Notes under the pieces: model-generated | Seen by the model: the letters and a program-made list of their open reading frames with translations, nothing else | Told to the model about the DNA's origin: nothing | Database searches by the model: none | DNA from: Liolophura sinensis | Taxonomy: Eukaryota; Mollusca; Polyplacophora; Chitonida; Chitonidae | Direction: 5' to 3' | Length of the DNA: 64,000 bases | NCBI RefSeq assembly: GCF_032854445.1 | Contig: NC_088306.1 | Coordinates: 20,865,764-20,929,763, forward strand | Shown here: in pieces, positions 31,760 through 62,609 of the stretch | How the letters are laid out: each line of letters begins with the position of its first letter | Position numbering within the stretch: position 1 is the first letter of the stretch | Translations under genes and position numbers: made by a program

Positions 31760-36349
<4,590 letters not shown>

Positions 36350-44672: not shown

Positions 44673-44789
44673 GGTCGGAAAGTTTACCATTTATCTGACA
44701 ACAGACGGCCGTTTACTCCAATATTTGTGACTCTTCTGATATTGCACAACATATTTACTTTATTTGAGGGCCAATACTCAGTTTATCAG

Positions 44790-45327
44790 AGCACGTGACA
44801 TGTCGAACCTGTCACATACACGTCAGGGAATTCCTTCTCACCCACGCGCTTGGCGGTCACCGTTAGTGTCCCAAGACTCACCTTGAAGTTAACTCCACAC
44901 TCTTAACTTCGCATGGAAATATCAGTTTTTTTTAAACAAGTCTGGACGTAAACTTTGACAAATCTTGCTTTGCGTCTGGTACCATATGTTTTCCGAAGTC
45001 TTGCTAAACGTCAACGCTTTCTAGGTGGTTAATCTATGTCACAAAAAGGGAGCTTCCGGTAATAATCTGATAATTATTTACGTCCAGTTTATGAATTTCC
45101 TGGTCTATGTCACTCATCTTCAGGTGTACCAGACCAGACTGACTATCCACATGGCTGACGTGTTCCTTGTGGTAGGCACAGAAAGTAACAACCTCGTCTG
45201 CCGACGCCAGGCAAAGCTGAACTCCCAACTGGGCGTTCTCACAAGAACGGATCTCAACCAACCACTACCAGCTTTGGAGTCGCACAGTTGGACGACCAAA
45301 GCTTCATCAGAGAAGTCAGTTCCCGTG
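44790..45327 (-). pseudogene. DapF-like pseudogene lacking both catalytic cysteine segments
   Basis: Remains of a third minus-strand copy. It starts within the segment SDEALVVQLCDSKAG, jumps from IRSCENA directly to QLGVQL (deleting the CGNGGRC region), keeps VTFCAYHKEHVSHVD...SGLVHLKMSDID and YQIITGSSLFVT, and later loses the block with the second cysteine (GETLACGTG). It ends in DVYVTGS-TCHV. Frames differ between parts. It sits about 270 bp downstream of the intact copy at 45596. Confidence 0.85.
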
Positions 45328-45595
45328 TCTGCTGAGTTCGTGTATTTATACCCACAGGAACAGAAGTGTTGAGCGTTTATGGCCTATTGATAACGTGTGA
45401 CTTTGAGACTGTTGGTCTTCCCTCGGCTCTTCTCCTGGCTGTCAATTCTCTTTACTTTGCTCCTGTCTTAAATGCTCACAGCGGGAATAACCCGTAATGA
45501 AACCGGTTTCGGATTTTCTCGACCGTAAAAATGCAACAGAAATTTCCACGTTTACCTTGTTAAATGATACTGATGCTGAGTTTTGATGCTCAGTT

Positions 45596-46435
45596 TCAAT
45601 ACAGCTCTCCGACCACACCGTCGAACACGTGACATGCAGGACCAATTAGATACACGTCTGAGAATTCCCACTCACCCATGCGTCTGGCCGTCACCGTCAG
45701 TGTCCCAAGACGTACTTTGACGTTAACTTTCACTGCCGTCGGTTCCGTGAACACTGACCGCTGACTTACCGTAACAAGCGCAGCGCCAGCGGCGCCAGTC
45801 CCACACGCCAGCGTCTCACCGTTGACGCCGCACTCGTAACTTCGCACTGAAATATTCCAAGGGGTTTCCCCGTTCTGGACGTACATTTTGTTAAATCCCT
45901 CGTCATCACTGACGTCATGTGTTAAACGGGTGTCGTCACCATCCTTCTGAACGTCAAAGCTCTCAAGGTCGTCCACGTACGTCACAAAGTTACAGCCGCC
46001 CGTATCGATCTGGTAGGTATTCTCATCAAGCTTACAGGCCATTCCCTGCTCAATATTTCTCAACTGAAGGCGCACGAGTCCAGAACCACTGCTAAGATGA
46101 CCGACGTGCTCACCGTCATAGGCCGTACAGAATGTAACGTCTTCGTTTGCTGACGCCAGGCCGAGCTGAACTGCGAACTTCACAGCACAACGTCCACCAT
46201 TCCCGCAAAACGACCCCAACCGCCCGTCGCTACAGTGATACACAAACTCAAAAGCACAGGAACTGTGCTCAGCGTTCTCACAAGAACGGATCTCGACCAA
46301 CCCGTCCGCACCAATCCCAGTTCTGGGGTCGCATAATCTCGCGATGAAAGCTTCTTTGGAGAAGTCATTCTCCCCATTTCTGTTATCCACAAAAATAAAA
46401 TTGTTCCCCAAAGCGTGGTATTTTGAAAACTCCAT
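45596..46435 (-). CDS. Diaminopimelate-epimerase-family protein (DapF-like), copy 2
   Basis: 279 residues, intronless, full length for DapF (about 275), two-lobed fold with one cysteine per lobe. In bacteria DapF epimerises LL- to meso-diaminopimelate for lysine and cell wall; animals lack that pathway. Visible motifs: start MEFSKYHALGNNF, GIGADGLVEIRSC, SFCGNGGRC (first Cys), TGGCNFVTYVDD (the TG-x-PH region of DapF, PH missing), YECGVNGETLACGTGA (second Cys), ending DVYLIGPACHVFDGVV. I chose the MEFSK start because it aligns with DapF and copy 1. An upstream in-frame ATG at 46471 overlaps a TATA-like TATATTTGAAG (46466-46475, about 30-40 bp upstream). It is more GC-rich than its surroundings. 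Catalytic cysteines are intact but substrate residues differ, so the reaction is uncertain. Confidence 0.92.
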   Translation of the reverse strand: MEFSKYHALGNNFIFVDNRNGENDFSKEAFIARLCDPRTGIGADGLVEIRSCENAEHSSCAFEFVYHCSDGRLGSFCGNGGRCAVKFAVQLGLASANEDVTFCTAYDGEHVGHLSSGSGLVRLQLRNIEQGMACKLDENTYQIDTGGCNFVTYVDDLESFDVQKDGDDTRLTHDVSDDEGFNKMYVQNGETPWNISVRSYECGVNGETLACGTGAAGAALVTVSQRSVFTEPTAVKVNVKVRLGTLTVTARRMGEWEFSDVYLIGPACHVFDGVVGELY

Positions 46436-46557
46436 GATGTTCTCAAAGTGTTTCTTAGATGTTGTCTTCAAATATAAGCGTATAGTACCAAGATGTGTTT
46501 GTACTCAGGTGTTAATCGCTTTGCGTGACGGTGCAACAACAACGATGTATAACGATG

Positions 46558-46583
46558 GTCTAGGCTAGGCTAGGCTAGGCTAG
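46558..46583. repeat. (GGCTA)n microsatellite
   Basis: Five tandem CTAGG/GGCTA units. Confidence 0.85.
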
Positions 46584-46699
46584 GTAACAGGACCTATATA
46601 GGCCAAACCTCTGACCGATAGGCCTACTCATTATTCAGAGAAATATTGTGTGGGACGGATAAAGACGACGTCTTTGACGGTTTTGTTTGAGGGTTGGTG

Positions 46700-48660
46700 A
46701 ATTCAGGTCAAACTTACATCTTTGCTGCGTTTTCCCTGTGAGTAGGCTGATATTCTCAAAATCTCTACTAGCACAGTATCCACAGGCAGAAAGCTCCACG
46801 CGATTTACGACTCTAATCAGTTATGTTAAGACATGTCTGGGACCGGCCTCAGGGCAACAGATAGTCATGCTGGGACTGACTGCCGCTTACACCAAACAAA
46901 ACAAACAAAATCGAGATATATGATAAATGATACAGACTTCGTTTTTTCTCAGAAACGTGCACAAAACTGTTAAATAATGATCTCAAAACCCCTATAATGT
47001 CCGTTGACTGGAAAACGGTATATAAGAAATTATATGACATTAGAAGTTGTTTCGGTGATATCTACGCTGCATGGCTTTATGCAGCTGACTTAATTGTAGG
47101 GGTTAGGTTTGTAGGTTAGGTTATATCTGGTATTCAGGCAGACAGACGTTTATCTTAATCCCAGATTATGCAATGTATACTATAAGTCGACCAAGTGATC
47201 GTGCATGGTCTCTTCTACGTTTGCACGCGTGCGTGGTACGGGAAATTTATTCTCCGTCACGGATAACATATACTAGGCAGGGATTGACCCATTTATAGTC
47301 AGCTGTTTAATTTTCATGGAAGCATTTCAATGACACTGTCTGTTAACCTTTACACACATGACTAAAACATCGTCATAATCTTTATACTACTCTCGATAAG
47401 CATGCTGAACAATCTTGTATAGCCTTCAGAAGAAAAATATGTTATTATAACTATAGAGTGGATAAATCCTATGTCGTATCGTATATGTCACAATGTGTTC
47501 ACGCGTATATTATACTCTCTGCTTTGTGGAGGTTTTCAGCTACGAAGAATAATTTTCCTCTACTACGCATGCGTAGAAACATAGGCGAGACGACGGTCAC
47601 TTGTCGTATTTACTGTAGCCTATATAATATATCCAAAGTTTACTAAAAGTTTACAGTTTACTAAAACCCGGATACTATAAAAATGGTATTGTTGCTACCT
47701 CGCTTGGCGCCCAGCGCTGAGAGGTTAGAGCAAGGAAACGGGACTGTTTGGCCCGATGTCAGTATAATGTGACTGGGTGTCATGTCTATTGTCTTCGTTC
47801 ATTTATTAACTAACACTAATTTACTGGTAGCACATGCAAGAGTGAAGTTTTGTTGTGTTATTGAGTCATAGAAGACAATTGTTTTGAAAACCCCTGCCTG
47901 AGCTTAGTCATAAGTTCGAAACCTGTAGTTGTAACCGTACTTGTATAAGTCATACAATATATAGTTTTATACATACACAAATATCTAAAGAGGCTACACC
48001 GGAGATATTTGGCGAAAAGGAAGTAAGCAGAAATCCAATTTTTTCTACTCTTTTAAACTAGAACAAATTATTACTTTCCACAAAAGATCAGTCCCGTGTG
48101 TGCGCATGTTATTGTTCACAATCAATAATAAAGTTCCTAAAACTTTGCATAGCTGGTATATAGCATTATTAATTTGAAAAACATTAGTATCATTTTAACA
48201 CTGTAGGCGTCTGACGTTAACGGAATGACTAATACTCTGCCTAGCAGTATAGCCTCTTTAATTTATTGCTCAGCAGGTGAAACTAACAAGTTACCTTAAT
48301 CTATGTACACCATAGGCAGGGTCAACTCAATGTTCTGGTTTCCGAAATGTATTAATTTATTCATTTGATTGTATTTTAACTTCATGCATATTGAACATTT
48401 TATTTTCACATATAAAGTATGGCGGCCCTGGAAAGTTCGATTTAAATCACGGACCTCTGGCACCTTTCTGACGCATATTCTCACGTGTGACGCACACATG
48501 TCTAGTATTAAACGTCTTCAACCAACGTTATATGAGTACGAGCATCGGCGTCGGCGTCGGCTCCTGTCACTACCCGTACTATCAGTGAGAACGTGGGAAT
48601 CCACAAATTCCCTGCCTAAGGTCGGGATTAAACCTGTACCTCATGTATAGTAGTAATTGA
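46700..48660. other. Intergenic between the two dapF-like genes
   Basis: No gene recognised. Near 47695-47790 (CTCGCTTGGCGCCCAGCGC, GCCCGATGTCAGTATAATG) there is a piece that resembles a dispersed repeat. Possible AATAAA hexamers for the upstream gene lie on the minus strand near 48354 and 48400. Confidence 0.4.
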
Positions 48661-48672
48661 CAAGAAAGTGGT

Positions 48673-49509
48673 TCAGGTGATCTCACGGACCACACCATCG
48701 AACACATGACATGCAGGACCAATTAAATAAACGTCTGAGAAGTCCTTCTCACCCAATCGCCTGGCCGTCACCGTCAGTGTCCCAAGACGCACAACGACGT
48801 TAACTTTCACTGACGTCGGTTCAGTGAACGCTGACCGCCGAGTTACCGTAACAAGCGCAGCGCCAACTGCGCCAGTTCCACACGCTAGCGTCTCACCGTT
48901 GACGCCGCACTCGTAACTTCGCATGGAAATTTCACAGTTGTTTTTGCCACAAGTCCGGACGTACACCTTGACAAATGCCTCTTTTCGTCTGAAATCATAT
49001 AATTTCCGAGTTTCATCACCGTCCTGTTGGACGTCAACGCTTTCTAGGTTGTCGACGTACGTTACTAAGGCACAACTGCCGGTATAAATCTCATAATTAT
49101 TGTTGTCCACTCTATGAATCCCCCGGTCTATATCCGTCATCTTAAGGTGTACCAGACCAGACTGACCATCCACATAGCCGACATGTTCTCCGTCGTACGC
49201 ACAGAACGTAACGTCCTCGTCTGTCGACGCCAGGCCAAGCTGAACTGCAAACTTCACAGCACAACGTCCTCCGTTCCCACAAAACCCTCCTACTCGTCCG
49301 TTACTACGATGGTAGACAAACTCAAAAGCACAGGAAGGATGCTGTGTGTTCTTACAAGAACGAATCTCGACCAACCCGTCCGCACCAATCCCAGCTTTAG
49401 AGTCGCACAATCTGGCGACTAATGCTTCGTCAGATAACTCATTTCGCATCTCTCTGTTATCCACAACTATGAAATTATTCCCTAAACCGTGGTACTTAGA
49501 AAACTCCAT
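48673..49509 (-). CDS. Diaminopimelate-epimerase-family protein (DapF-like), copy 1
   Basis: 278 residues, intronless and complete. Starts MEFSKYHGLGNNFIVVDN, then ARLCDSKAGIGADGLVEIRS, GGFCGNGGRCAVKFAVQLG (first catalytic Cys), TGSCALVTYVDN, MRSYECGVNGETLACGTGAV (second Cys) and DVYLIGPACHVFDGVV. Wording such as YHGLGNNF and GIGADGLVE is closest, from memory, to Bacteroidetes-type DapF. Compared with bacterial DapF, the Asn of NSDG is Arg (YHRSNG), PH of TG-x-PH is replaced, and the Arg of YERG is Cys. A TATA-like TATTTAAAG (49553-49561) lies about 45-50 bp upstream, giving a very short 5' UTR. Copy 2 lies 2.2 kb away on the same strand, so these are tandem paralogues. A role in amino-acid racemisation or epimerisation is likely; the substrate is unknown. 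Confidence 0.93.
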   Translation of the reverse strand: MEFSKYHGLGNNFIVVDNREMRNELSDEALVARLCDSKAGIGADGLVEIRSCKNTQHPSCAFEFVYHRSNGRVGGFCGNGGRCAVKFAVQLGLASTDEDVTFCAYDGEHVGYVDGQSGLVHLKMTDIDRGIHRVDNNNYEIYTGSCALVTYVDNLESVDVQQDGDETRKLYDFRRKEAFVKVYVRTCGKNNCEISMRSYECGVNGETLACGTGAVGAALVTVTRRSAFTEPTSVKVNVVVRLGTLTVTARRLGEKDFSDVYLIGPACHVFDGVVREIT

Positions 49510-49552
49510 AGCTCTTCCCGTTTTTCTGACTTTCTGGTTGCAAAGGAGTGCT

Positions 49553-49561
49553 CTTTAAATA
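49553..49561 (-). promoter_or_regulatory. TATA-like box of DapF-like copy 1
   Basis: TATTTAAAG on the minus strand, 44-52 bp before the start codon. Position and sequence fit an RNA polymerase II core promoter; the transcription start is not shown. Confidence 0.45.
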
Positions 49562-49794
49562 CCCTGTCGGAGTGGTATTTTAGTATGTGCGCCCTGACGT
49601 CAACGATGACCTAAATATCGCGCCGTGCGTGCTGAAACCACTATGAATATATTGACTGGCTGTGTTGTTCAGTTATCAGGGACACCAGGGCAATGGGGTC
49701 AGTACGGTAGGCACTGCGCGTCAAGTCTATTTTTGTGAGCTTATTTCTTGTGGTTCTTGTTGGTGTGGGGTGAAAAGGTCGTGTGTTAGTATTT

Positions 49795-50012
49795 CAGTTA
49801 TCCCACGGCGGTCAGCAATGTGATGAGAGCAAACCGGACAGAGCCCGGGGAAACCCACGACCACCAGCAGGTTGTTGGCGGACTTTCCCACGTACAGATA
49901 GAGTGGAAGTTAGCATGAGCTGGAATTTGAACTCACAACGACCGCACTGATGGTAGGCTCCTGGGTCATTGCGCGGTACTGGCGTGCTAACTCCCTCGAC
50001 CACGGAGGCACC
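49795..50012 (-). repeat. SINE-A, tail-truncated
   Basis: Reverse copy with CGGTCAGCAATGTGATGAGA, AGCCCGGGGAAACCCACGAC, GGCTCCTGGGTCATTGCGC and head CTCGACCACGGAGGC. Confidence 0.87.
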
Positions 50013-50275
50013 AGAATTTAGATAGACTGTTAAAATAAGTCTAACTGAGTTCAGCTCACAAAGAGGCGGTATTTCACCGGTTGGGTGTAAACATTTGCCA
50101 ATTACCAGATTGTCGTTGCTGCTCTGGTTATATTCTGTATGTTGTAGTATCTTATTATACCCATACTATCTTATATTCATAAGCATTTATTCTAAATGGT
50201 AAAGATAAAAATAGACAAATTTAGTGTTACATCAATGCCTTTCAATATTATCAATGTATGTTAAGAATACTTTAC

Positions 50276-50706
50276 GGTGAGCAGCGTTATGGTGGGAGGA
50301 AACCGGGCAAAACCCACGATTATCTGTAGAAAATGCGAATGAAGTTCCTGGAAAGCACGGAACACCGAAGTCATGCTGTCAAAGAAATAATTTGTCTTTA
50401 ATAAACCGCTAGGACAAAGATACATGTACTTTAACTTTGGCCAGAAGCGTAAATTTCATACCAGTGCCAAGAATGGGACACTGCCATATTGTCGCAGACT
50501 TGTGAAAACTCTGTATAGATTGGCATACTTTGCGGGATGCGATAAACCATAAGCAAGATACCCAATCCTTCCAATCCACCACCATTCGGCCCTAACGCAC
50601 TGGGGATTACATCTATGTTGCACACTTTCCTCCCACAATAATGCTGGCTGCCGTCGTATAAGTGAAATATTCTTGAGTAACACCAATCAAATAAATAAAT
50701 AAATCA
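50276..50706. repeat. Two SINE-A fragments
   Basis: Reverse fragment at 50276-50332 (GCGTTATGGTGGGAGGAAAC) and forward tail at 50625-50706 (CACAATAATGCTGGCTGCCG, ending AATAAATAAATAAAT). Confidence 0.75.
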
Positions 50707-50709
50707 TTG

Positions 50710-51330
50710 TAATTCACCCACTGAAAAGCCGGAAAGATGTTTGTATTACTTCCTCCGTCCGATAGTCAAACCACCGTCTACGTACATAAGTGACACTGGT
50801 TATTCCATAAACACACTGAAAAAAGTACGGGCACCATGCACTGGAGTGTACTTGAAGGGTCAAGATTTAAATGTTCGAAAGTTCTGGATATCAAATGCCA
50901 TCCCAAATCTACGGAAACATTCTCTAAGTGCACGTGGACTCAGCTCATCCCGTCGTGCTTCAAATCATTACTTAAAGGGGACTCGATCAGATATGCTGGA
51001 TTATGTAACAGTAGTGCCGAGTTTATTGATAAATTGGAAATATTTTAGTGTAAATTAAGACGCAGGATCTATCCTAACCGAGAAGTCTCTGACTTTTGCC
51101 GTATGATAGCTAACATAATAGACGGCGGTCACACTTGAAGCGTAAACCATAGGTGGCAGAATCTTCTATTTATACCTGTATATATAGCAAGGTATAAAAC
51201 TTCAATTCCAGGGACAGAAGCCCTAAGTTTACCTAATTGCATTTTGTCAGCTTTCGGTCGTACCTGGTTTGGTTGAGATTGAACCATTTTCCGTGTTTTA
51301 TGTGAAGTTATGTAAAGTGAGGGGTTATGA
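50710..51330. other. Intergenic, no gene recognised
   Basis: Overlapping open frames 50741-51058 and 50836-51048 have no recognisable domain. Confidence 0.4.
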
Positions 51331-51342
51331 CCCAGGCATTGA

Positions 51343-51676
51343 GTGAGTGCTTGGGGTTTAACGTCATACTTAACAATTTTTCAGTCATATGACGACGAAG
51401 GAATCCTTAGAGTGCATGTAATGTGCCTCCTTGTAGCAAGACAGACTTCCACTTTTCTTTTATCTAGTGCTGCTTCACTGAGATGCCTTACTGAAGGCAA
51501 GTAAGCCACCCAGCCCGAGCCATTATACTGATAGGAGTCAACCAGTCGTTGAACTATCCCCTTAACACTGAACGCCAAGCGAGGAAGTTACTACTTCACG
51601 TCTTAGGTGTGACCCGACCCAGGATTGACCCGAACCGACGCGGACGCTCTGTACCAACTGTGCTATCGAGGCCGGT
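51343..51676 (-). repeat. SINE-B, full length with 12-bp target-site duplication
   Basis: Reverse orientation: tail GAGTGCTTGGGGTTTAACG, body, then tRNA-like head ending TGTGCTATCGAGGCCGG. CCCAGGCATTGA flanks it at 51331-51342 and 51677-51688. Confidence 0.92.
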
Positions 51677-52349
51677 CCCAGGCATTGAAGCTATGTACTT
51701 TATGTTATATATTAGGTATAAACAGCGTTCGAACGATTCTGTCACCTATGACGTAAACCAACTCGCAGCAACACCTCGACTCTAACTCAAGTGAGGCCGA
51801 TCCCTTTCATCACAACATATAATCCGCATGCGAAATATTACATACTGGGTATATGCTAAAGAAGTATCGGCATATACTTCAGTCTGATAGAACTACATCT
51901 AATTTGTTTTCAGCTAAATTAACGATTGTGTAGGGAAGAGGGAAGAACTTGGAAAAATGATCTCCCGCACTAAGGTAATGTCACTGCATTGATTTAAGTT
52001 GACTCCTATTTTCATACCACCATTCGATCCTAACACACTGCACTTACACTTATGCTACACACTTGGAGCTCACGTACAAACAGCTGACGGCTTATAATAA
52101 TAATTTACCAAAGCATATATTTGGATTAACCAGGAATTATTGTCAAGAGGTACTTGAGAAAGGTCGGTGGTTTTCTTGAGGCTCGGTCGGTTTCCTCCAC
52201 TTCTTAAAGTCACTTCACTGGTACTAATTCGTCAATAGTATCGTGTTAAACCAAAATCAAATGGTTAACAAATGTCTTCTCTTGGCTCTTGGTTTGAAGA
52301 GTTGAGTATACACGTAGCAAGCAAATATTTATTTACGATCTTTACAATC

Positions 52350-52480
52350 TTATTTGATTGCTGTTTCACGCCGTACTCAAGAATATTTAACATATACGAC
52401 GGCGGCTAGTATTATGGCGAGAGGAAACCGGGCATATCCCAGGTTAAATCCGCGACCATCCGCAGGTTGTTTGCAGACAG
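52350..52480 (-). repeat. SINE-A, head-truncated
   Basis: Reverse copy: TTTGATTGCTGTTTCACGCC, GGCGGCTAGTATTATGGCG, CGCGACCATCCGCAGGTTG. Confidence 0.86.
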
Positions 52481-53186
52481 AAAGCAAATAAAACTCACAA
52501 CGACTCATTTATATGAAGATTTATTCTCGTGGTAAGCGATCAGTCGCTGGACAAAGAGGTTGTAGGCTCGTAAGTCACAAACTGTGCTCCTCTCCACACC
52601 CTGCATCTGGAAATCTTAGTTGTACCTAACTATTTGCTATATTGATTGTTACCTTATATTTTAATGTTGATTTAACTTATGTTTGTTCTTTCATTACGGA
52701 TGGAGAAAGATACGCTAAACTGGTGTGTACCAAACACTCTTTTGTAGCGGGGGATTATTCAGCCTAATGGCGGCATGTGATGCGCTGAGGATCTGGTTGC
52801 GGCCAGCGCTTCGCGGTTGATGAAAACGATGGCATCAATCTTAAAACTCGGCGAGGTGAGTGGACAGTCTAACTAACGTGCTGTGTCTGTTATTGGCTTT
52901 CAGAGAAGCTCTGCAGATGCAGATTCTCCCTATGTTCTGAAATCTGCAATCCAGGACGCCACTGTCATTTACCTTTTTGCCCACAATGGACTTAATTGTG
53001 ATACTAATGCTTATAGCAGAAAAAGGCTCGACGTACAAAGAAACAAAAAGCAGAGATACAGCAGAATATATTTCGAAGAAAACAATTCAGAAAAACTTCG
53101 CTTCTAGTTAGACCAGTTAAAAATGCAAAAGTAGGATACACAGAATGTGAAATGGGCCTCGAATCTTAAACCACCAGCATAGAACC

Positions 53187-54257
53187 ATGATGGACATTCC
53201 CGTGTCAAGCACTCCCTTCAACTTTACCAACTGTAGTACAAGCCTTCCTGAAGTCGCTCAGGCTGACCTCTCTGCTTCCTTGTGGCGTCAGATTTACGTG
53301 GTTTGTGTCTCTGTCGTGGCGACTGCAGCTAATCTTATCGTCATTGCCTGCTTGTGGCGGAACCCCAGTTTGGAGGCCACTGGTTTCTCTACCTACGCTG
53401 TCTCCATGGCGTTTACTGATTTACTGGTAGGTGTTGTACTTATGCCTTTTAGGTTCATTCGAATGTTATGGCCAGGGTGGTTCTTACTACTTCCTGCGTG
53501 TGTTGCATGGAAATTTTTGGACCATGGACTCATTTCTGTCTCTATGCTGCTCTATCTGGTTATGAGCTATGACCGGTACCGATGTGTAACAGCCCCACTT
53601 CAATACCGTTCTCAATTCCGGACAACCCGGATATTCCGGATATCCGTGTCCTTGTGGATAACAGGTTTTATCCTGTGGATACCGTACGTACTGCTAAAGG
53701 TATTTATCTATAGTGCGGACTCTTTTCAGACACGGTGCCCTCCGTTTACCTTCGGACCTAACGTTTTTGAGATAATCCAAATAACTGTTGCCTATTATAT
53801 TCCTATTCTGGTCCTCATAATAATGAATACCATTTTACTAAAGAGGCTGAACGTACGGACTCACGGATCAGGTACGCGAAAACCAACAACCGACAGCCGG
53901 CAGAGACCATCCAACATATCAACGGTGAGTGGCGTGATCGGACATCAATACAGACCTTGTACACCTGTGACGAGTGTGTCAGTGAAGATAGTGAGCAGAG
54001 GACATATGTCAAAGAAGGCCTCCCGTTATAAGATCGTCATCCTGACTGTGGTTTTCTGCGTGTTTTGGCTGCCACATTTCATCACGTGGCCTATAAACGG
54101 AATGTGTCGCACATGCGTGTCAGATGATATCAGGGACGATTTTGGATTCCTTACTTATGCACAATCCGCCATTAACCCGCTGATCATCATTTCCACAAGT
54201 ACACAAATTCGTTCCAAGCTATCACGTGCATGTGTTGTGCTCTCGCGGATAAAGTAA
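53187..54257 (+). CDS. Rhodopsin-class GPCR with amine-receptor features (paralogue 1)
   Basis: A 356-residue intronless seven-helix receptor. Alignment with the paralogue at 61557 supports the second Met (53190, MDIPVSSTPFNFTNCSTS) as start. NFT and NCS are N-glycosylation sites. TM1 has AANLIVIA (Asn1.50), TM2 FTDLLVGVV (Asp2.50), TM3 starts with Cys3.25, and an Asp (FLDHGLISVS) lies exactly 17 residues before the Asp of DRY, i.e. Asp3.32, the amine-binding position. It has YDRYRCV, a short third loop, FWLPHFITW in TM6 and AINPLII in TM7, where the usual NPxxY Tyr is Ile. The overall look recalls histamine, muscarinic or trace-amine receptors, but I cannot assign a ligand. A possible AATAAA is at 54478-54483. 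TTGCGGCCAGC near 52800 is shared with sequence near 60028 upstream of the paralogue. Confidence 0.9.
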   Translation: MMDIPVSSTPFNFTNCSTSLPEVAQADLSASLWRQIYVVCVSVVATAANLIVIACLWRNPSLEATGFSTYAVSMAFTDLLVGVVLMPFRFIRMLWPGWFLLLPACVAWKFLDHGLISVSMLLYLVMSYDRYRCVTAPLQYRSQFRTTRIFRISVSLWITGFILWIPYVLLKVFIYSADSFQTRCPPFTFGPNVFEIIQITVAYYIPILVLIIMNTILLKRLNVRTHGSGTRKPTTDSRQRPSNISTVSGVIGHQYRPCTPVTSVSVKIVSRGHMSKKASRYKIVILTVVFCVFWLPHFITWPINGMCRTCVSDDIRDDFGFLTYAQSAINPLIIISTSTQIRSKLSRACVVLSRIK

Positions 54258-54827
54258 ATGCAGATTGTTATAGAGTTGGCGTGATGGTTTTAGCACCAAA
54301 AGGAAATTTAACATCCCAAATGATCGGAAAAACGGCTAACAGAGAAGAATCGTATGAGTACGGTGGTCATCTTGTGCTAGTTCGCAATGGTGCAGATATT
54401 AAAATGACGCGGTTGCCAGCAACGCTTGGCGTTACAAGAACAAAATATCGCAGTTTGCTTTGAACAAACTATTCAGGAATAAACTATTCACCTTAAATTT
54501 ACTTTAGATTGGCATTGTCAAAACATGATATGTTTGCAGGGGTAAGTTTACATACAGAATTACACTGTTCTGTTCTGTGACCTGGAACTCGGTCTTGCCA
54601 TTCGCTACAAAAACCTGCAGTTTTTCCGATGGCATATCATGGATGTAAATGACCCGAACGTCACAAATGCACGGAAACCTGGAAGGAACATTCAATGGTA
54701 AAAGAAATCGCCAAAAAAGGCAGATGACGGGTGGCATTCACCGCCTTACTGTGAGATGCCTTGTACACCTCATGACCCTATGATATAATCTACTAAGGTT
54801 GACTAGAAATAACACTTGAATATCACA

Positions 54828-55000
54828 CATGCTAGTGTCCTGTCTGACCGTTTGTGGGAAAGTCTGCCACCAAACCTGTGGGTGGTCGTGGGTTTCCCCC
54901 GGGCTCTGCCCGTTTTCCTCCCATTATAATGCTGACCGTCGTCATATAAGTGAAATATTCTTGACTATGGCGTAAACACCAGTCAAATAAATAAATAAAT
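54828..55000 (+). repeat. SINE-A, head-truncated
   Basis: GGTCGTGGGTTTCCCCCGGG, CCATTATAATGCTGACCGTC, tail AAATAAATAAATAAA. Confidence 0.88.
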
Positions 55001-55539
55001 TGAATATCATGTTAACTTAACCGATAGAGTTTGTAAGTTAGGCAGTACAGCATGCAGTGTCACCTTTGCGTTGTGGCCTTGTCAGGACTCTCGCTAGCGG
55101 CTCCTCTGTATCTCCGCGTTGTTAACGTTGTTTTTTTTACATTTAATGCCACTGTACAACCTACCGTACGAGCTGGCTTGGTATTATTCATTTTATATGC
55201 ATAAAGCATGTCGGTTGCAGCCCCCTAGCTTGTGGTATTTGAGAATTTAATTCCCCAGTAGGATATCGACTAATAATTAAAATCATTAAGAGGCCGGCAG
55301 AGAGCTGATTTTTTTTCTTAAGTTAATCGCCATGAAGTAGAATGCCAGGAAACGTTGGCGTTTGGGGTAGAAAACACTCTGAAACAGGCTACGGTTTGTT
55401 GGGACTGATTGGTAACTCTGGATAAGAAGGTAGCTGGTTTCCCTATCGGCGTTGGCATATATTTACTGGTTCTCTCTGTGTAAAAGTTTTTCACAATAAT
55501 CTGTACCAGCGAGAGGCTTATTCCAGGCTAAGGGTTTCT

Positions 55540-56240
55540 CATTATTAAAGGAAAAGACCTCTAAAAATCGAAGTAGGCATCACTAAATAGACCACTTAAA
55601 ACAATGCATGAATATATTTCCATTTTTTTTTTAGGATTTTTGTGAAAAGAGCTAAAGGCGTTCAAACATTTCAATTCTAAGGTGGACTTTATGGACCATA
55701 CTGTCAGAGTTTCTGACGTCAGAGGAAGTTTTTCCAACTCTAATCACCAAACTAAATGTTGGAATTATTACCCTCTTTACCCCTGAGTAAAATATCACTG
55801 AAATAATGTTCTCAAAAATATCTTTCTTTTGGTGAACATCAGGGTAAAAAGGTGATGTGACGTCAGACTTCTTAGATACCGTCAATATGGCTCATAAAGC
55901 CCACCAAAAGGTGATGTGACGTCAGACTTCTTAGATACCGTCAATATGGCTCATAAAGTTTTTGGAAGTTTTTCCAACTCTAATCACCAAACTAAATGTT
56001 GGAATTATTACCCTCTTTACCCCTGAGTAAAATATCACTGAAATAATGTTCTCAAAAATATCTTTCTTTTGGTGAACATCAGGGTAAAAAGGTGATGTGA
56101 CGTCAGACTTCTTAGATACCGTCAATATGGCTCATAAAGCCCACCACAGTATTCAAATATCTGAATGCCTTAAAGCTCTCTTCAAAAATCTGAATAAGTA
56201 AATAAATTTATTTTTGCGCATAGTTTTCAGTTGTCTACAT
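55540..56240 (+). repeat. Dispersed repeat with an internal 240-bp tandem duplication
   Basis: The segment starting GGAAGTTTTTCCAACTC occurs at 55724 and again at 55964, with near-perfect identity for about 177 bp. A further partial copy of its end lies at 55910. Ends match 37043-37315 in inverse. Contains four perfect TGACGTCA palindromes (55714-55721, 55858-55865, 55917-55924, 56098-56105). Confidence 0.85.
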
Positions 56241-56285
56241 AATGAACCTTACTTCACATTTTATTTCTTTTACTTTTGGCGTATG

Positions 56286-56405
56286 ATTTATTTATTTGAT
56301 TGGTGTTTTACGCCGTACTCAAGCTTTAAGCATATGTCCTTATAATATTATAGTGAGTGGGTGAGTGAGTGAGTGAGTGCTTGGCGTTTAACGTCGTCTT
56401 TCCAG
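56286..56405 (-). repeat. SINE-A tail fragment followed by SINE-B tail fragment
   Basis: TTTGATTGGTGTTTTACGCC at 56286-56324, then a (GTGA)n tract and GTGCTTGGCGTTTAACGTC at 56352-56405. Confidence 0.75.
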
Positions 56406-56593
56406 ATATTCACAAAGGGCAGCAAACATTAATTAACATTATAGAGAACTGGATCCTTATTACTTATCATTCTATACCGCAGGAACAACTCCACAACTTA
56501 CGAGTGCATATAGACTGAAATATAATTCAATGTTCAGGTTAGGACATCCGAAAATCAGTTCCATCGAAGGAGCAGTCAGTGACGGGTGAAGAC

Positions 56594-57213
56594 ATGGAGT
56601 TTTGGGAAATAATTTTATATTTGTGGATAACCGAGAGAGGAGAGTTCTCTGAGGAAGGCTTTGTCGTCAGATTGTGCGACTCCAAAACTGGGATTGATTC
56701 GGACTGGTTGGCCGAGATCCGTTCTGTGAGAAGGCCCAGCACCGTCCCTGTGCTTTTGTTTATTTATTTATTCGATTGGGGTTTTATGCCGTTATACTGA
56801 TACGGATCAACCAGTTGTTGCACTATCCACTTCACGTTGAACGCTAAGCGAGGAAGTTACAACTTAGGTCTGACTCGACCCAGGTTTGACCCTGGATCTA
56901 CCGCTCCCGAAGCGGGCGCTCTACCAACTGTGCTATCGGGGCCGGTCCTGTGCTTTTGAGTTTGTGTACCACTGTAGCGACGGACGTATAGGAGGGTTTT
57001 GCGGGAAGGGTGGACGAAAAGTTACGAGTGCGGTGTCAGCGGCGATACGGAACTGACGCCATTGGCGCTGCGCTTGTCACGGTAAGTCGACGGTGTGCGT
57101 TCACTGAACCGATTTAACGTCAAAGTACGCTGTTGGTGACGGCCAAGAGCGTTGGTGAAATGGAATTCTAAGACGTGTATCTGACTGGTCTAACATGTCA
57201 CGTCTAGGATTCT
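56594..57213 (+). pseudogene. DapF-like pseudogene interrupted by a SINE
   Basis: Fourth family copy, on the opposite strand. It starts ATGGAGTTTTGGG, continues with GFVVRLCDSKTG, WLAEIRS and STVPVLL, then is broken by the insertion at 56759-56946. After it come FVYHCSDGRIGGFCG, a frameshift at the GNGGRC site, a large deletion to the ACGTGA-like remnant (frame shifted), and DVYLTGLTCHV at the end. GPCR-derived sequence follows within a few bases. Confidence 0.88.
56759..56946 (-). mobile_element. Chimeric SINE (SINE-A tail joined to SINE-B head) with 12-bp target duplication
   Basis: Reverse orientation: the (TTTA)n-TTCGATTGGGGTTTTATGCC part is the SINE-A tail; from TTATACTGATACGGATCAAC on it is SINE-B body and head, ending TGTGCTATCGGGGCCGG. 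CCTGTGCTTTTG flanks it at 56747-56758 and 56947-56958, so it inserted as one unit. Confidence 0.88.
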
Positions 57214-57215
57214 TA

Positions 57216-57914
57216 TATATCAGGTCAACTGCATTTTATTTACCTTTGGACCTAATGTTTTATTTATTTATTTATTTGATTGGTGTTTTACGGCGTACTC
57301 AAGAATATTTCACTTATACTACGGCGGCCAGCATTATGGTGGGGGGAAACCGGGCAGGGCCCGGGGGAAACCCACGACCATCCGCAGGTTGCTGTCAGAC
57401 CTTCCCACTTACGGCTGGAGAGGACTAATGTTTTAGAAGTAATCCAATTTACTGTAGCCTATTACATTCCCATTTTAGCACTTATTATAATGAACAGTAT
57501 TTTGCTATGGGCACTGAACACACGCATTCCCCGATCACAAACGTCAGCAGCCTACAGTCGGCGGACGCCAGCTGACATTTCAACGGTGGCTGACATCGAT
57601 GGGCATCACTCCAGGTCATGTGAACCTGTGACGAGTGGTGTCAGTAATTGGTGTGAACAGAGAACATGTGGCGAAGAAGAGGCGTTCAGGAATGGCCTCA
57701 AATTATAAGATTGTCCTCCTGGTGGTCGTGTTTTGTGTGTACTGCCATATTGCTCACGTGGCCTGCAAATGGACTGTGTCCCACGTGCTTCTCAGAAGAA
57801 ATCAAAGATATATTTGGATACTTTCCCAAAAGACAATCCATAATTAATTCGTTAAGTCCACAAATTCGTACCAAGCTAGCTCGCGCATGCACTGTGCATG
57901 TATGGACAAAGTAA
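57216..57914 (+). pseudogene. GPCR pseudogene (C-terminal half) interrupted by SINE-A
   Basis: Matches 62067-62609 of paralogue 2 from just before TM5 to the C-terminus. TM1-TM4 are absent. A SINE-A is inserted after GGACCTAATGTTTT. Later there are deletions and frameshifts: one in TM6 (between FCVYCHIAHVACKW and the normal reading) and another that removes the NPLIVICT part of TM7. It is joined directly to the dapF pseudogene end. Confidence 0.9.
57259..57424 (-). repeat. SINE-A inside the GPCR pseudogene
   Basis: Reverse, head-truncated: TTTGATTGGTGTTTTACGGC, GGCCAGCATTATGGTGGG, CAGACCTTCCCACTTACGGC. CTAATGTTTT is repeated on both sides. Confidence 0.92.
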
Positions 57915-59300: not shown

Positions 59301-61555
59301 GGTCTTTTAGCTATTATTAACCTTAACATGTTATGCTTAGGGGTGGGTCAAGACTGAAAGTGAATATTTGTTATATATTTATTTAACTGATTGGTGCATA
59401 ACTGCGTGGTCAAGAATTTTGCAGAAGTTTCATTTGCAGGGCAGCGATTTTCATAACTTTACAGTCTCTAACGCAAAAAGTAAAGAGATATTTTCAGTGT
59501 GACTAGAGCCGATTTTTTCGATTTTATAACCTATACATGGCTTCAGTGCATGGTTGGAGCCCTGTGGTTTTCATATGACAGGAACGGACCACTAAACAGA
59601 ACTGAAAAAAGAAGTAGCCTTACTAGTTTGTTAGTCTCGTCTCACTACTTGAGGCCCACAGTTTCTTGCACTGGGGCCGATTCCCCACCTTATCTTAACA
59701 GGTCCTTTGGAGAGTCTATGAAACGGGAAAGGTGCAAGTCTGTTCCGTATAGATGAAGAAGGAAAATGTTTGTTCTTGTGTGGAAAACGCCAATAACTGA
59801 AGTTCCGTTTTCTTTGGTAGTTTATATCAGAAAACACGGGAATCAATTCTCATCGTTATTATTTGAACTGATTTATAATTGTTGACTGACTGAATGTTTG
59901 CTTTGACATTACGGATACTTCTTCGTAAAAACAGAGACACGTAGGCCTAACTGAAGCGTTCCGACCACACCTGTGGAGCGGGAGTCCAGACAAGCCAGTG
60001 GTCAAAGACATTCTAGTGAATGTCTGGTTGCGGCCAGCATTGCTTTAGATGTATTAGGTAAAAAAAAACATGCCGTTATGTTAATTGAAATATATTTGAC
60101 GTTACTGGTTTAACTTTACAAGGTACAGTAATAGGTTCAAATATTTTAAAAGACATCCATGGCTGCGGTACTGCACAGGTGGCGTTAAGCCATTATTATT
60201 CACTCGTGATACTGGGACACTGTGACGACCATTGTGTGCGTTACCTTGCTGAACCATTTAACCAAAGACACAAGGATAACCAGAGCTAAAGAAACCACCG
60301 GGATTAGAATCAGTGCCTATCTCGGTGCGTCCGTCAGTCAATTTCCTTCTTCAATGGGGGAGATCAGTGAAATGTCTGACGAATTTAGTTAAATCTCACA
60401 AATTTCTTTTCGAAGAACCAAGGTCTCAACAGTCATTCCAAGACCGGCATCTCAAGGTGCAGGTCAGAACGCACAACCTGATTTACTCGGACGTTATGTA
60501 GAACTTACGAATATATGAAAAATAGGTGTGATATATCATCGGGACGGTCACATACATTTCTGGGTAAATTACATAAAGGGATATCTCTAGCTCAGTCTTC
60601 CTCTCTACGCAGGGATATAAGTTATGGGTCATATTCAACAAAAACGCACACCACTGAAGATGCGTTTTAGGAAATCTGACAACTGCTGCCCACAAAAGTA
60701 ATTCAACTAGTTTCTTGATATAAGGCGGAGGTGAGTTTTGAGGACCATTTAACACTGAGGACTAGACAGACTAATGCGGAAAACCATCTTGATACGAAAC
60801 ATTAATTACACCTTATCCAGGTCTGGCAGCAAATATGAAACTCAATGCTGATTGGCTGATAAACCTCCAAAAATATCAGATTGGGTTACCTTTTAATCTT
60901 CGTTTACCATAAAAGTAATGGAAAACATTACTATTGCAAATATTACATGCACTTAAATTCTGGATGTCAACTAAACAGGAGGGTTGACATCTTTATGCCA
61001 AATGAACGTGTTATTTGTTTCTCCATTGGTAATGTGTTTACATGAAAAGAAAGATGCCAGGATGGTGTGTACCGACAACTAATGTATAAAGCAGAGTAAG
61101 CAAGATATAGTTTATAAATAGCATGTGAATCTAGCTAAATAGTTGCTTACGACCAGAACTGTAAGGTACATATTGACCAGCAAATCAAACTTATATACGG
61201 ACCGTGAATTTGTCGACTGCGTCTGCTAGAACGTCTCTATGGGAATGGGTTAAGTTCTCCAGTTACAGCTTTCACTGAGCCGTATGTAAGGTGTGAAAAC
61301 AGATTTAAAACGTCTTGCAGATCGGGAAATATAGTTTGTGACCTTGCTTGATTCCTATATTGAAACTATCGGGTGCCTCCTTTCTTCGATGTTACCCATG
61401 GTAAGAGCTGGATATGACAGACGGAAACATAAGCAAAAGTCGGTTATGAACTAAACGACATTGGTTCTTCTCTGAGGATCACATGCGATAATACCTAGTT
61501 ATCAATTCAAGAAATTTGAAAGGTGTCAACACAAGAACCACAATCACAGATCTAT
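59301..61555. other. Intergenic upstream of GPCR paralogue 2
   Basis: A SINE-A tail fragment lies near 59370-59415 (TTTAACTGATTGGTG). TCTGGTTGCGGCCAGC at about 60022 matches a sequence about 400 bp before GPCR paralogue 1 and could mark a shared 5' region. Nothing else recognised. Confidence 0.4.
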
Positions 61556-61556
61556 C

Positions 61557-62609
61557 ATGGAGATTCCAGCGTCAATCACTCCCTTCAACTTCACCAACTG
61601 TAGCACAAGCCTTGCTGAAGTCGGTCAGACAAACATCACCCTGCGTCCCCTTTTCGCGATCTGTGTCTCAGTGGTGGCCACACCAGCTAATCTTATCGTC
61701 ATTATCTGCTTGTGGCGAGATCCCGGTTCGGAGGTTTCTGGCTTTTCTACCTACGCTGTCTCAGTGGCGTTCACCGATTTACTGGTAGGTGTAGTTCTCA
61801 TGCCTCTTAGATTCATTGGAGCGATTTTGACAACCTGGCCCTTTGGACTCGCTGGCTGCATTTTGTGGAGATATATCGATTTTGGGCTTATTTCTGTGTC
61901 CATGTTCCTCTTTCTGGCCATGGGTTACGATCGGTGCCGTTGTGTGACAGCCCCTCTACAGTATCGTTCTCACTTTAAGACAACCAAGGCGGCTTGGATA
62001 TCGGTATTTGTGTGGATAGTAGGCTTTGTTTTATGGACACCGTATTTATTACTGAAAATATTTATGCATCAGGTCAACTGCATTTTGTTTACTTTTGGAC
62101 CTAATGTTTTAGAAGTAATCCAATTTACTGTAGCCTATTACATTCCCATCTTAGCACTTATTATAATGAACAGTATTTTGCTATGGATACTGAACACACG
62201 GATTCCCCGATCACAAACGTCAGCAGTCAACAGCCGGCGGATGCCAGCTGACATTTCAACGGTGACTGACGTCATTGGGCATCACTCCAGGTCATGTGAA
62301 CCTGTGTCGAATGTGTCCGTAATAGGAGTGAACAGAGGATATGTGGCGAAGAAGAGGCGTTCAGGAATGGCCTCAAATTATAAAATTGTCCTCCTGGTGG
62401 TCGTGTTTTGTGTATGTTGGCTGCCATATTGCATCACGTGGCCTGCAAATGGGCTGTGTCCCACGTGCATTTCAGAAGAAATCAGATATATTCTTGGATA
62501 CTTTCCTTATGGACAATCGGCCATTAATCCGTTGATCGTTATTTGCACAAGTCCACAAATTCGTACCAAGCTAGCTCGTGCATGCACTGTGCATTTACGG
62601 AAAAAGTAA
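61557..62609 (+). CDS. Rhodopsin-class GPCR with amine-receptor features (paralogue 2)
   Basis: A 350-residue intronless receptor. Start MEIPASITPFNFTNCSTS aligns with paralogue 1; NFT and NCS are glycosylation sites. TM1 PANLIVII (Asn1.50), TM2 FTDLLVGVV (Asp2.50), Cys3.25 followed by YIDFGLISVS with Asp3.32, YDRCRCV (DRY as DRC), VNC in the second loop able to pair with Cys3.25, CWLPYCITW in TM6 (canonical CWxP) and AINPLIV in TM7, with Val in place of the NPxxY Tyr. The third loop is short, about 70 residues. Plasma-membrane receptor; ligand unknown, an amine is the best guess from Asp3.32. A truncated dead copy with the same 3' flank lies 5 kb upstream, so the family is duplicating locally. 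A possible AATAAA is at 63759-63764. Confidence 0.92.
   Translation: MEIPASITPFNFTNCSTSLAEVGQTNITLRPLFAICVSVVATPANLIVIICLWRDPGSEVSGFSTYAVSVAFTDLLVGVVLMPLRFIGAILTTWPFGLAGCILWRYIDFGLISVSMFLFLAMGYDRCRCVTAPLQYRSHFKTTKAAWISVFVWIVGFVLWTPYLLLKIFMHQVNCILFTFGPNVLEVIQFTVAYYIPILALIIMNSILLWILNTRIPRSQTSAVNSRRMPADISTVTDVIGHHSRSCEPVSNVSVIGVNRGYVAKKRRSGMASNYKIVLLVVVFCVCWLPYCITWPANGLCPTCISEEIRYILGYFPYGQSAINPLIVICTSPQIRTKLARACTVHLRKK

What the first reader, a model, noticed from the sequence alone, without database searches (positions are those of the whole stretch)
45596..49509. Bacterial-type DapF genes resident and expanding in an animal genome
Two intact, intronless, full-length diaminopimelate-epimerase-family genes and two dead copies lie within 12.5 kb (44790-57213) of spliced animal genes. 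Animals have no diaminopimelate pathway, so horizontal acquisition followed by tandem duplication is the simplest reading. Contamination is unlikely: the dead copy at 56594-57213 carries an animal SINE with its target-site duplication and is joined to a GPCR fragment. Wording in the proteins (YHGLGNNF, GIGADGLVE) looks closest to Bacteroidetes-type DapF, from memory.
Basis: partly seen in the sequence, partly recalled or inferred. Interest (0 to 1): 0.85.

Follow-up and report, generated by a model that had tools for sequence, protein, structure and literature searches.

The report
Mollusc's borrowed, multiplied bacterial racemase genes
A mollusc chromosome carries a bacterial-type enzyme gene (DapF, used by bacteria for cell wall and lysine) that has multiplied in tandem and changed its substrate pocket, while one unchanged copy and a partner lysine gene sit elsewhere, hinting that an animal may make lysine from bacterial building blocks and has evolved new amino-acid-flipping enzymes.

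Summary
Confirmed, with one change of meaning. The two ORFs are intact, intronless DapF-family genes under purifying selection (NG86 dN/dS 0.27, bootstrap 0.18-0.38). They belong to a resident family in a 609-Mb mollusc genome: nine intact, two damaged and six dead copies, 14 of the 17 in a stretch of about 330 kb. A SINE with target-site duplication sits in one dead copy and in three of its four sister units; the fourth is a natural empty site. Contamination is excluded. The family branches with Bacteroidota-type DapF (99/99, second tree); grouping with plant DapF is rejected. Inside or beside Bacteroidota is unresolved (AU p 0.13-0.18). The expanded copies are probably no longer DAP epimerases: all nine intact copies keep the two catalytic cysteines, but eight lack N64, H159 and R209, which hold or line the far end of DAP. 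One copy on another contig keeps the whole set. The same genome holds a spliced diaminopimelate decarboxylase (LysA) gene; dapB was not found. Best reading: an old bacterial-type dapF, kept in one copy perhaps to salvage DAP into lysine with LysA, gave rise to a tandemly amplified family of cofactor-independent racemases for another, unknown amino acid. There are no expression or enzyme data.

The parts
45596..46435 (-). Intact DapF-family gene 1 (279 codons from ATG; the longer ORF runs to a TTG at 46471)
   Evidence: positions 64 and 209 are C, Cys73 and Cys217 kept
48673..49509 (-). Intact DapF-family gene 2 (278 aa)
   Evidence: position 64 R, 209 C; model pLDDT 92.7, pTM 0.91
49555..49561 (-). 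TATA-like element 52 bases upstream of the gene 2 ATG
   Evidence: consensus match only
46470..46476 (-). TATA-like element 41 bases upstream of the gene 1 ATG
   Evidence: consensus match only
44789..45231 (-). Dead DapF-family copy
   Evidence: G000:C12:20910552-20910994, pieces with stops; repeat family D4 with gene 2
56594..57219 (+). Dead DapF-family copy with stops, interrupted by a SINE
56759..56946 (.). SINE inside the dead copy, 12-base target-site duplications 56747-56758 and 56947-56958
   Evidence: natural empty site in L109
53187..54257 (+). Intact intronless rhodopsin-family GPCR ORF between DapF copies (host context)
   Evidence: PF00001 8.2e-33

Best explanation
A dapF gene of Bacteroidota type entered the ancestry of this mollusc long ago and became a chromosomal gene family. 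One descendant (C13:720k) kept every DAP contact tested and probably still epimerises LL-DAP to meso-DAP; together with the spliced LysA on C6 it could turn DAP taken from bacteria into lysine (salvage; no dapB was found for de novo synthesis). The other lineages, including both window genes, kept the two-cysteine cofactor-independent racemase machinery but lost conserved residues of the pocket for the distal end of DAP, and one of them was amplified in tandem on C12 together with neighbouring DNA in units of about 60 kb. These copies most likely racemise a different amino acid. Shown: residence, ancestry type, purifying selection between the older copies, residue changes, LysA gene. Inferred: enzyme activities, substrate, lysine salvage, expression.
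For: Families: both window genes above the TIGR00652 cut-off. Copies on 30-31 Mb contigs with animal genes and SINEs. Best bacterial match of the singleton 47% identity in a Bacteroidota genome, 148 of 148 sampled Bacteroidota genomes matched, against 34.6% for the highest-ranked non-Bacteroidota plasmid record (60 of 85 records listed). Bacteroidota-type rows plus the animal singleton 99/99 against 9 other rows; five animal rows one clade 97/81; grouping with Arabidopsis and Anabaena rejected, p 7.6e-15. Residues: N11, C73, G74, N75, E208, C217, G218, T219 kept in 9 of 9 intact animal copies; N64 and H159 are present in 85 of 85 Bacteroidota rows but in 1 of 9 animal copies; 209 is R or K in 85 of 85 but R in 1 of 9. 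The Dab racemase PddB has all of N64, N157, N190 and R209 substituted and takes no DAP (PMC8225329, passages). NG86 dN/dS 0.27-0.34 between the older array copies, bootstrap upper limits 0.38-0.43 for three pairs. Fold: the top six structural matches are DcsC and DapF entries, Z 31.9-29.3 over 254-256 residues. LysA: 351.8 bits against a cut-off of 297.9 for hand-joined exons, splice signals.
Against: No expression, activity or substrate data. Bacteroidota without the animal rows is not rejected as a clade; the animal branches are long (1.0-1.5). Outgroups are few and the genome-contig scan was biased by its patterns, one of them FCGNG[GS]RC. Window gene 1 still aligns with N at position 190, and gene 2 has R at position 64, which might replace R209. 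YN00 ratios are higher (0.33-0.47) than NG86. The five youngest copies show NG86 ratios from 0.20 to 1.10 on few changes, so some may be decaying. The intact C13:23156k copy scores under the DapF cut-off in two pieces, and so does C12:21122k in one. No DapL and no NlpC/P60 match was found, so no dedicated host release of DAP from peptidoglycan is shown.
Confidence: 0.6

Rival explanations
1. The array copies are still DAP epimerases with a remodelled pocket, amplified for dosage to work with LysA on dietary DAP.
For: Seven of the nine intact copies reach the DapF equivalog cut-off in the genome search, one of them only with its neighbours in the frame; catalytic residues and E208 kept; LysA present; R64 in window gene 2 could stand in for R209.
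Against: N64, H159 and R209 are lost in 8 of 9 intact animal copies and N190 in 7 of 9, while conserved in 85 of 85 Bacteroidota rows (209 as R or K); PddB with losses at 64, 157, 190 and 209 rejects DAP.
Confidence: 0.15
2. The expanded copies are pseudoenzymes or decaying duplicates without a selected catalytic role, carried along by segmental duplication.
For: Six dead copies, one TGA-bearing copy and one copy with an internal deletion exist; the youngest copies have weak constraint on few changes.
Against: NG86 dN/dS of 0.27-0.34 between the older copies, bootstrap upper limits 0.38-0.43 for the three pairs tested; both catalytic cysteines and the reactive-end set kept in 9 of 9 intact copies.
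Confidence: 0.2
3. DapF was already in the common ancestor of choanoflagellates and animals, or came by way of another eukaryote, and survived in this mollusc; no transfer from bacteria directly to molluscs happened. This concerns the route and can be true together with any reading of function.
For: [quoted passage not shown] AU tests leave it possible that the animal genes lie outside Bacteroidota.
Against: A clade with plant DapF is rejected; no other animal or protist sequence was examined here.
Confidence: 0.3
4. Bacterial contamination or assembly artefact.
For: Intronless genes; two units are 99.85% identical over 2 kb, so some copies could be assembly duplicates.
Against: Copies on contigs of 30-31 Mb, beside a GPCR gene and SINEs, with dead copies that share a SINE insertion and a natural empty site.
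Confidence: 0.02

Closest known systems
Horizontally acquired dapF and lysA of whitefly Bemisia tabaci (also dapB) and mealybug Planococcus citri (PMC4607527, passages)
   Same: Bacterial dapF resident in an animal genome, accompanied by lysA, serving the last two steps to lysine.
   Different: The whitefly dapF groups with Enterobacteriales and its lysA with Planctomycetes, and the genes complement a bacteriocyte symbiont; here a mollusc, Bacteroidota-type dapF, a multi-exon LysA nearest to chloroplast enzymes among solved structures, no dapB found, large tandem expansion and loss of the DAP pocket.
PddB, PLP-independent 2,4-diaminobutyrate racemase (PMC8225329, passages)
   Same: DapF relative with a two-base mechanism and substitutions at the same distal-end positions (64, 190, 209).
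   Different: Actinobacterial enzyme of a polymer pathway, Val at 209; substrate of the mollusc proteins unknown.
O-ureidoserine racemase DcsC (PDB 7vdy)
   Same: Top structural match of the model, Z 31.9, rmsd 1.9 over 254 residues, tied with DapF 9mro at 31.3.
   Different: 28% identity; bacterial D-cycloserine pathway; ranks below DapF entries in the sequence searches.
Bacteroidota DapF (for example marine Flavobacteriaceae)
   Same: Up to 44% and 47% identity to the singleton C13:720k over nearly its whole length; shared motifs TGSPH, NVNFV, TYERGVE.
   Different: Array copies have lost the distal DAP contacts.
Salpingoeca rosetta dapF of prokaryotic origin (PMC7971027)
   Same: DapF acquired by an opisthokont; other DAP genes also flagged there.
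   Different: Not compared in sequence; unicellular.

Membership tests
Diaminopimelate epimerase (DapF, TIGR00652) - window genes | Score above the equivalog cut-off 114.65 bits | tested here: met
   132.9 and 130.1 bits. In the genome search 8 of 13 rows are over the cut-off, one only with its neighbours in the frame; intact copies C12:21122k and C13:23156k are not
Diaminopimelate epimerase (DapF) - window and array genes | Two catalytic cysteines and reactive-end contacts (N11, C73, C217, G218, S/T219) | tested here: met
   9 of 9 intact animal copies
Diaminopimelate epimerase (DapF) - window and array genes | Distal DAP-binding residues N64, N190, R209 | tested here: not met
   8 of 9 intact animal copies lack N64 and R209, 7 of 9 lack N190 (window gene 1 keeps it); conserved in 85 of 85 Bacteroidota rows, 209 as R (64) or K (21); among 13 other rows only the Haloarcula protein departs at 64 and 209
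Diaminopimelate epimerase (DapF) - window and array genes | Epimerises LL-DAP | not testable with these tools
   needs an enzyme assay
Diaminopimelate epimerase (DapF) - singleton C13:720240-721067 | All catalytic and distal residues of Bacteroidota-type DapF | tested here: met
   152.2 bits TIGR00652
PLP-independent amino-acid racemases of the DapF fold (PddB, DcsC, CntK, HisR) | DapF fold with two catalytic cysteines and a changed distal pocket | tested here: met
   likeness in kind, not membership in any one of them
PLP-independent amino-acid racemases (PddB, DcsC, CntK, HisR) | Racemase activity on a non-DAP amino acid | not testable with these tools
   needs an enzyme assay
Diaminopimelate decarboxylase (LysA, TIGR01048) - G000:C6:34558500-34566000 | Score above equivalog cut-off 297.9 bits | tested here: met
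   351.8 bits for exons joined by hand, profile positions 24-387 of 417; single exons stay below the cut-off
Bacterium-to-animal horizontal transfer | Nested within the donor group with support | tested here: inconclusive
   Groups with Bacteroidota-type rows 99/99, but nesting inside them is not significant (AU p 0.182 and 0.128)
Bacterium-to-animal horizontal transfer | Physical linkage to host genes and repeats | tested here: met

The most novel reading that the evidence does not exclude
This mollusc owns an animal-specific, tandemly amplified family of cofactor-independent amino-acid racemases descended from a bacterial DAP epimerase, with a new substrate, while the unchanged parent copy and a spliced LysA let the animal make the essential amino acid lysine from the diaminopimelate of the bacteria it eats.
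Probability: 0.35. Interest if true: 0.85.

Novelty: new variant of a known kind. Interest (0 to 1): 0.63.

Why it matters
Animals are held to need lysine in the diet (PMC3287585 lists it among the nine human essential amino acids; passages). A mollusc with genes for both terminal enzymes of the DAP route makes a direct test possible: does labelled DAP become lysine in an animal in which the earlier steps were not found? The array adds a case of a bacterial-type enzyme that multiplied inside an animal genome and lost its old substrate pocket while selection kept its catalytic core. If the copies are racemases they would be a source of free D-amino acids, which molluscs are known to contain (recalled, not from a call).

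Tried and rejected
Contamination: rejected. A clade with plant or cyanobacterial DapF: rejected by AU test. Viral carrier: the window protein found no relative among IMG/VR contigs (2 stretches matched a pattern, neither a relative), and the three-row alignment found one partial relative, query residues 2-95. The NCBI label Saccharospirillaceae of L018 suggested a gammaproteobacterial hit, but its genome's phylum sample holds the same genomes as that of G002, so I treat it as Bacteroidota. De novo DAP synthesis by the host: dapB (controls 11 of 14) and the DapL model TIGR03542 gave no match; genes split into short exons can be missed. Release of DAP by NlpC/P60 peptidases: no match. I first took the C6 matches for ornithine decarboxylase; dropped. 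Papers: ten searches listed no report of DapF in a mollusc; the library holds open-licence papers only, and several lists were ranked by other terms and cut at 5 to 25 rows, so this is weak. Papers seen as passages: PMC7971027 (also section 11), PMC11602996, PMC8225329, PMC12039745, PMC4607527, PMC4878875, PMC5976621, PMC3287585; all others as search listings.

Limits of the counts: tree 1 used 5 of 9 intact animal copies, 40 of the 80 loci, L092-L105 and four PDB rows; tree 2 used 1 animal copy, the other 40 loci, six repeats from the first half, 11 of the 14 rows L092-L105 and four PDB rows, leaving out L099, L102 and L103 because of long branches. Its bootstrap had not settled (correlation 0.979). 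Two labels were my choice: L105, a faecal phage record without annotation, was put with Bacteroidota in both trees; L104, a Bacteroides plasmid DapF of the H. influenzae type, was called Bacteroidota in tree 1 but 'other' in the AU test, in tree 2 and in the residue counts. So not every Bacteroidota DapF is of the type discussed: plasmid copies of Bacteroides (29.5%) and Parabacteroides (27.5%) are far from the singleton. In the residue counts the 85 Bacteroidota rows are L012-L095 and L097, and the 13 others include L104 and L105. The damaged copies L008 and L009 were left out of the residue and selection counts.
Full report
What is there. Two open reading frames on the minus strand, 45596-46435 (ATG start; the mechanical ORF runs to a TTG at 46471) and 48673-49509, encode proteins of about 279 and 278 residues of the diaminopimelate epimerase family: PF01678 at 3e-22 and 7e-23 and the equivalog TIGR00652 at 132.9 and 130.1 bits against a cut-off of 114.65. 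The solved relatives are DapF of bacteria and a plant and the O-ureidoserine racemase. Two dead copies lie at 44789-45231 and about 56594-57219.

Host and genome. The window is C12:20865764-20929763 of an assembly of 609 Mb in 632 contigs. Molluscan-type haemocyanin domains (PF14830) occur eight times in a row on C8, 8 of 8 over the cut-off and in none of the 14 control genomes. That this domain marks molluscs is recalled knowledge. I take the host to be a mollusc; the species is not identified.

The family. The window protein finds 29 matches in the genome. Putting together, nine copies are full length and open: seven on C12 between 20.911 and 21.238 Mb (two in the window), C13:23156262 and C13:720249. 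C12:21002363 is open but lacks 30 residues including part of the CGNGGRC motif, and C13:23159418 has one in-frame TGA. Six dead copies remain: the two of the window and four sister copies near C12:20983.8, 21044.7, 21104.2 and 21222.9 kb. These recur about every 60 kb (one spacing near 119 kb), which marks tandem segmental duplication of a unit that includes neighbouring DNA, among it a broken GPCR piece.

Not contamination. The genes sit on contigs of 30-31 Mb, and an intact GPCR ORF lies between the window copies (53187-54257). The dead copy at 56594 carries a SINE (56759-56946) flanked by a 12-base duplication; three of four sister units have the same SINE and duplication, and the fourth (L109) has a single copy of the 12-mer and no SINE, a natural empty site. 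The units are 94.2-99.85% identical to each other or to the window. L107 and L108 differ by only 0.15%, so an assembly duplicate cannot be excluded for that pair.

Selection. Between the two window genes NG86 gives dN 0.181, dS 0.678, ratio 0.27 (YN00 0.33), bootstrap 0.18-0.38. Between the window genes and the five recent C12 copies the NG86 ratios are 0.28-0.34 (YN00 0.33-0.47). Among those five the NG86 ratio runs from 0.20 to 1.10 on few changes, so constraint on the youngest copies is unclear. Comparisons with the C13 copies are saturated at silent sites. TATA-like elements lie upstream of four of nine copies, 52 and 41 bases before the ATG in the window genes; seven of nine have a polyadenylation-like hexamer within 500 bases downstream, and window gene 1 and L006 have none. 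These are weak signs; expression is unknown.

Ancestry. With an alignment led by the canonical copy as query, the best 80 of 528 confirmed loci of the GTDB genome collection are all Bacteroidota by my reading of their titles, except one with a Saccharospirillaceae label whose genome falls in the same phylum sample as G002. In a sample of 148 Bacteroidota genomes, 148 matched, best 47% identity. Among plasmid records the highest-ranked match is Bernardetia (Bacteroidota, 35.7%) and the highest-ranked outside Bacteroidota is Neochlamydia at 34.6%; Bacteroides and Parabacteroides plasmid copies are more distant, 29.5% and 27.5% (60 of 85 records listed). An unannotated faecal phage record matches at 42.9%. 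In tree 1 (63 rows) the five animal rows form one clade (97/81) within the Bacteroidota-type group (89/97). In tree 2 (62 rows, three long outgroups left out) Bacteroidota-type rows plus the animal singleton stand against nine others with 99/99. A clade of the animal rows with Arabidopsis and Anabaena is rejected (p 7.6e-15). Bacteroidota without the animal rows is not rejected (p 0.182; p 0.128). So the source is Bacteroidota-type or something beside it. Many bacterial phyla and all other animals and protists are unsampled. The event is probably old, since the singleton and the array share only about 38% identity.

The active site. On an alignment of 107 proteins with H. influenzae numbering, the nine intact animal copies all keep N11, C73, G74, N75, E208, C217, G218 and T219, the two-base catalytic machinery and reactive-end contacts. 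The distal end differs. N64, H159 and N190 are invariant in 85 of 85 Bacteroidota proteins, and 209 is R in 64 and K in 21; among 13 other proteins only the Haloarcula one departs at 64 and 209. (Position 157 is S or T and position 44 is G in the Bacteroidota rows, so these two say nothing here.) The singleton C13:720k has N64, H159, N190 and R209. The other eight have lost N64, H159 and R209, and seven of the eight have lost N190 (window gene 1 keeps N). The damaged copy C13:23159418, read by eye with its stop shown, still has the ER pair and a GTNV motif, so R209 seems to have been lost more than once. In cyanobacterial DapF the residues that align with N64, N157, N190 and R209 bind the distal carboxylate, and the first also the distal amine (PMC12039745, passages). 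In the bacterial diaminobutyrate racemase PddB, by its authors' structural model, all four are substituted, and the enzyme accepts neither LL- nor meso-DAP (PMC8225329, passages). By analogy the expanded copies should not take DAP. Two cautions: window gene 2 has R at position 64, which might replace R209, and gene 1 keeps N190.

Structure. An AlphaFold2 model of gene 2 from 32 aligned sequences has mean pLDDT 92.7 and pTM 0.91. Foldseek ranks DapF first; VIA-align ranks O-ureidoserine racemase at Z 31.9 (rmsd 1.9, 254 residues), tied with DapF 9mro at 31.3. The fold is intact; it does not decide the substrate.

A partner gene. A search for LysA gave exon matches below the cut-off on C6. Reading that stretch showed a multi-exon gene with LysA motifs and standard splice signals at several exon borders (GTAAGT, GGTATGT, CAG). 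Exons joined by hand score 351.8 bits to TIGR01048 over profile positions 24-387 of 417 (cut-off 297.9). Among solved structures the two best are chloroplast DAP decarboxylases (365.6 and 363.8 bits), ahead of the next at 269.4. In a sample of Bacteroidota genomes 28 of 31 matched, best 41% identity (another program, so bits are not comparable). The origin of this gene was not worked out. dapB and DapL gave no match, so full synthesis looks absent, with the caution that split genes can be missed.

How it probably works. Inferred: the singleton converts LL-DAP to meso-DAP, LysA decarboxylates meso-DAP to lysine, and the DAP comes from ingested or resident bacteria. Whitefly and mealybug took up dapF and lysA in independent transfers (PMC4607527, passages), and in the whitefly the two supply the terminal steps that its symbiont lacks, which shows that the pair can be useful to an animal. 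The array enzymes would use the same cysteine pair on another amino acid. Which one is unknown.

Known or new. Transfer of dapF to opisthokonts is known (whitefly, mealybug, choanoflagellate), diaminopimelate decarboxylase is listed as a transferred gene in Anthozoa (PMC4878875, passage), and DapF-type racemases with other substrates are known in bacteria. What I did not find described is a tandemly amplified, pocket-altered DapF family in an animal, or a mollusc with both DapF and LysA; the searches behind this are listed under Tried and rejected and cover open-licence papers only.

Noticed in passing
L111 = G000:C6:34558500-34566000, minus strand: Multi-exon diaminopimelate decarboxylase (LysA) gene, closest to chloroplast LysA among solved structures.
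   Followed up: partly
L018 (CATLPG010000028.1): MAG labelled Saccharospirillaceae carries Bacteroidota-type DapF and falls in the same phylum sample as G002; the label looks wrong.
   Followed up: partly
L107 and L108 (C12:20983400 and C12:21044300): Two tandem units are 99.85% identical over about 2 kb: very recent duplication, gene conversion or assembly duplicate.
   Followed up: no
window 55724-55906 and 55964-56146: Perfect 183-base direct repeat, starts 240 bases apart.
   Followed up: no
window 61476-62609 and 57280-57914: A second long GPCR-like ORF and a broken GPCR fragment beside the dead DapF copy, related to the gene at 53187 by eye; the fragment is shared by the four sister units.
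   Followed up: partly
window 6826-7311: ORF that resembles a Tc1/mariner-type transposase by eye (recalled likeness, not searched).
   Followed up: no
window 34443-35156: ORF made of degenerate short repeats ([10 protein letters not shown]-like), probably a minisatellite.
   Followed up: no
L012-L095, L097: In 21 of 85 Bacteroidota DapF proteins position 209 aligns as K instead of R.
   Followed up: no
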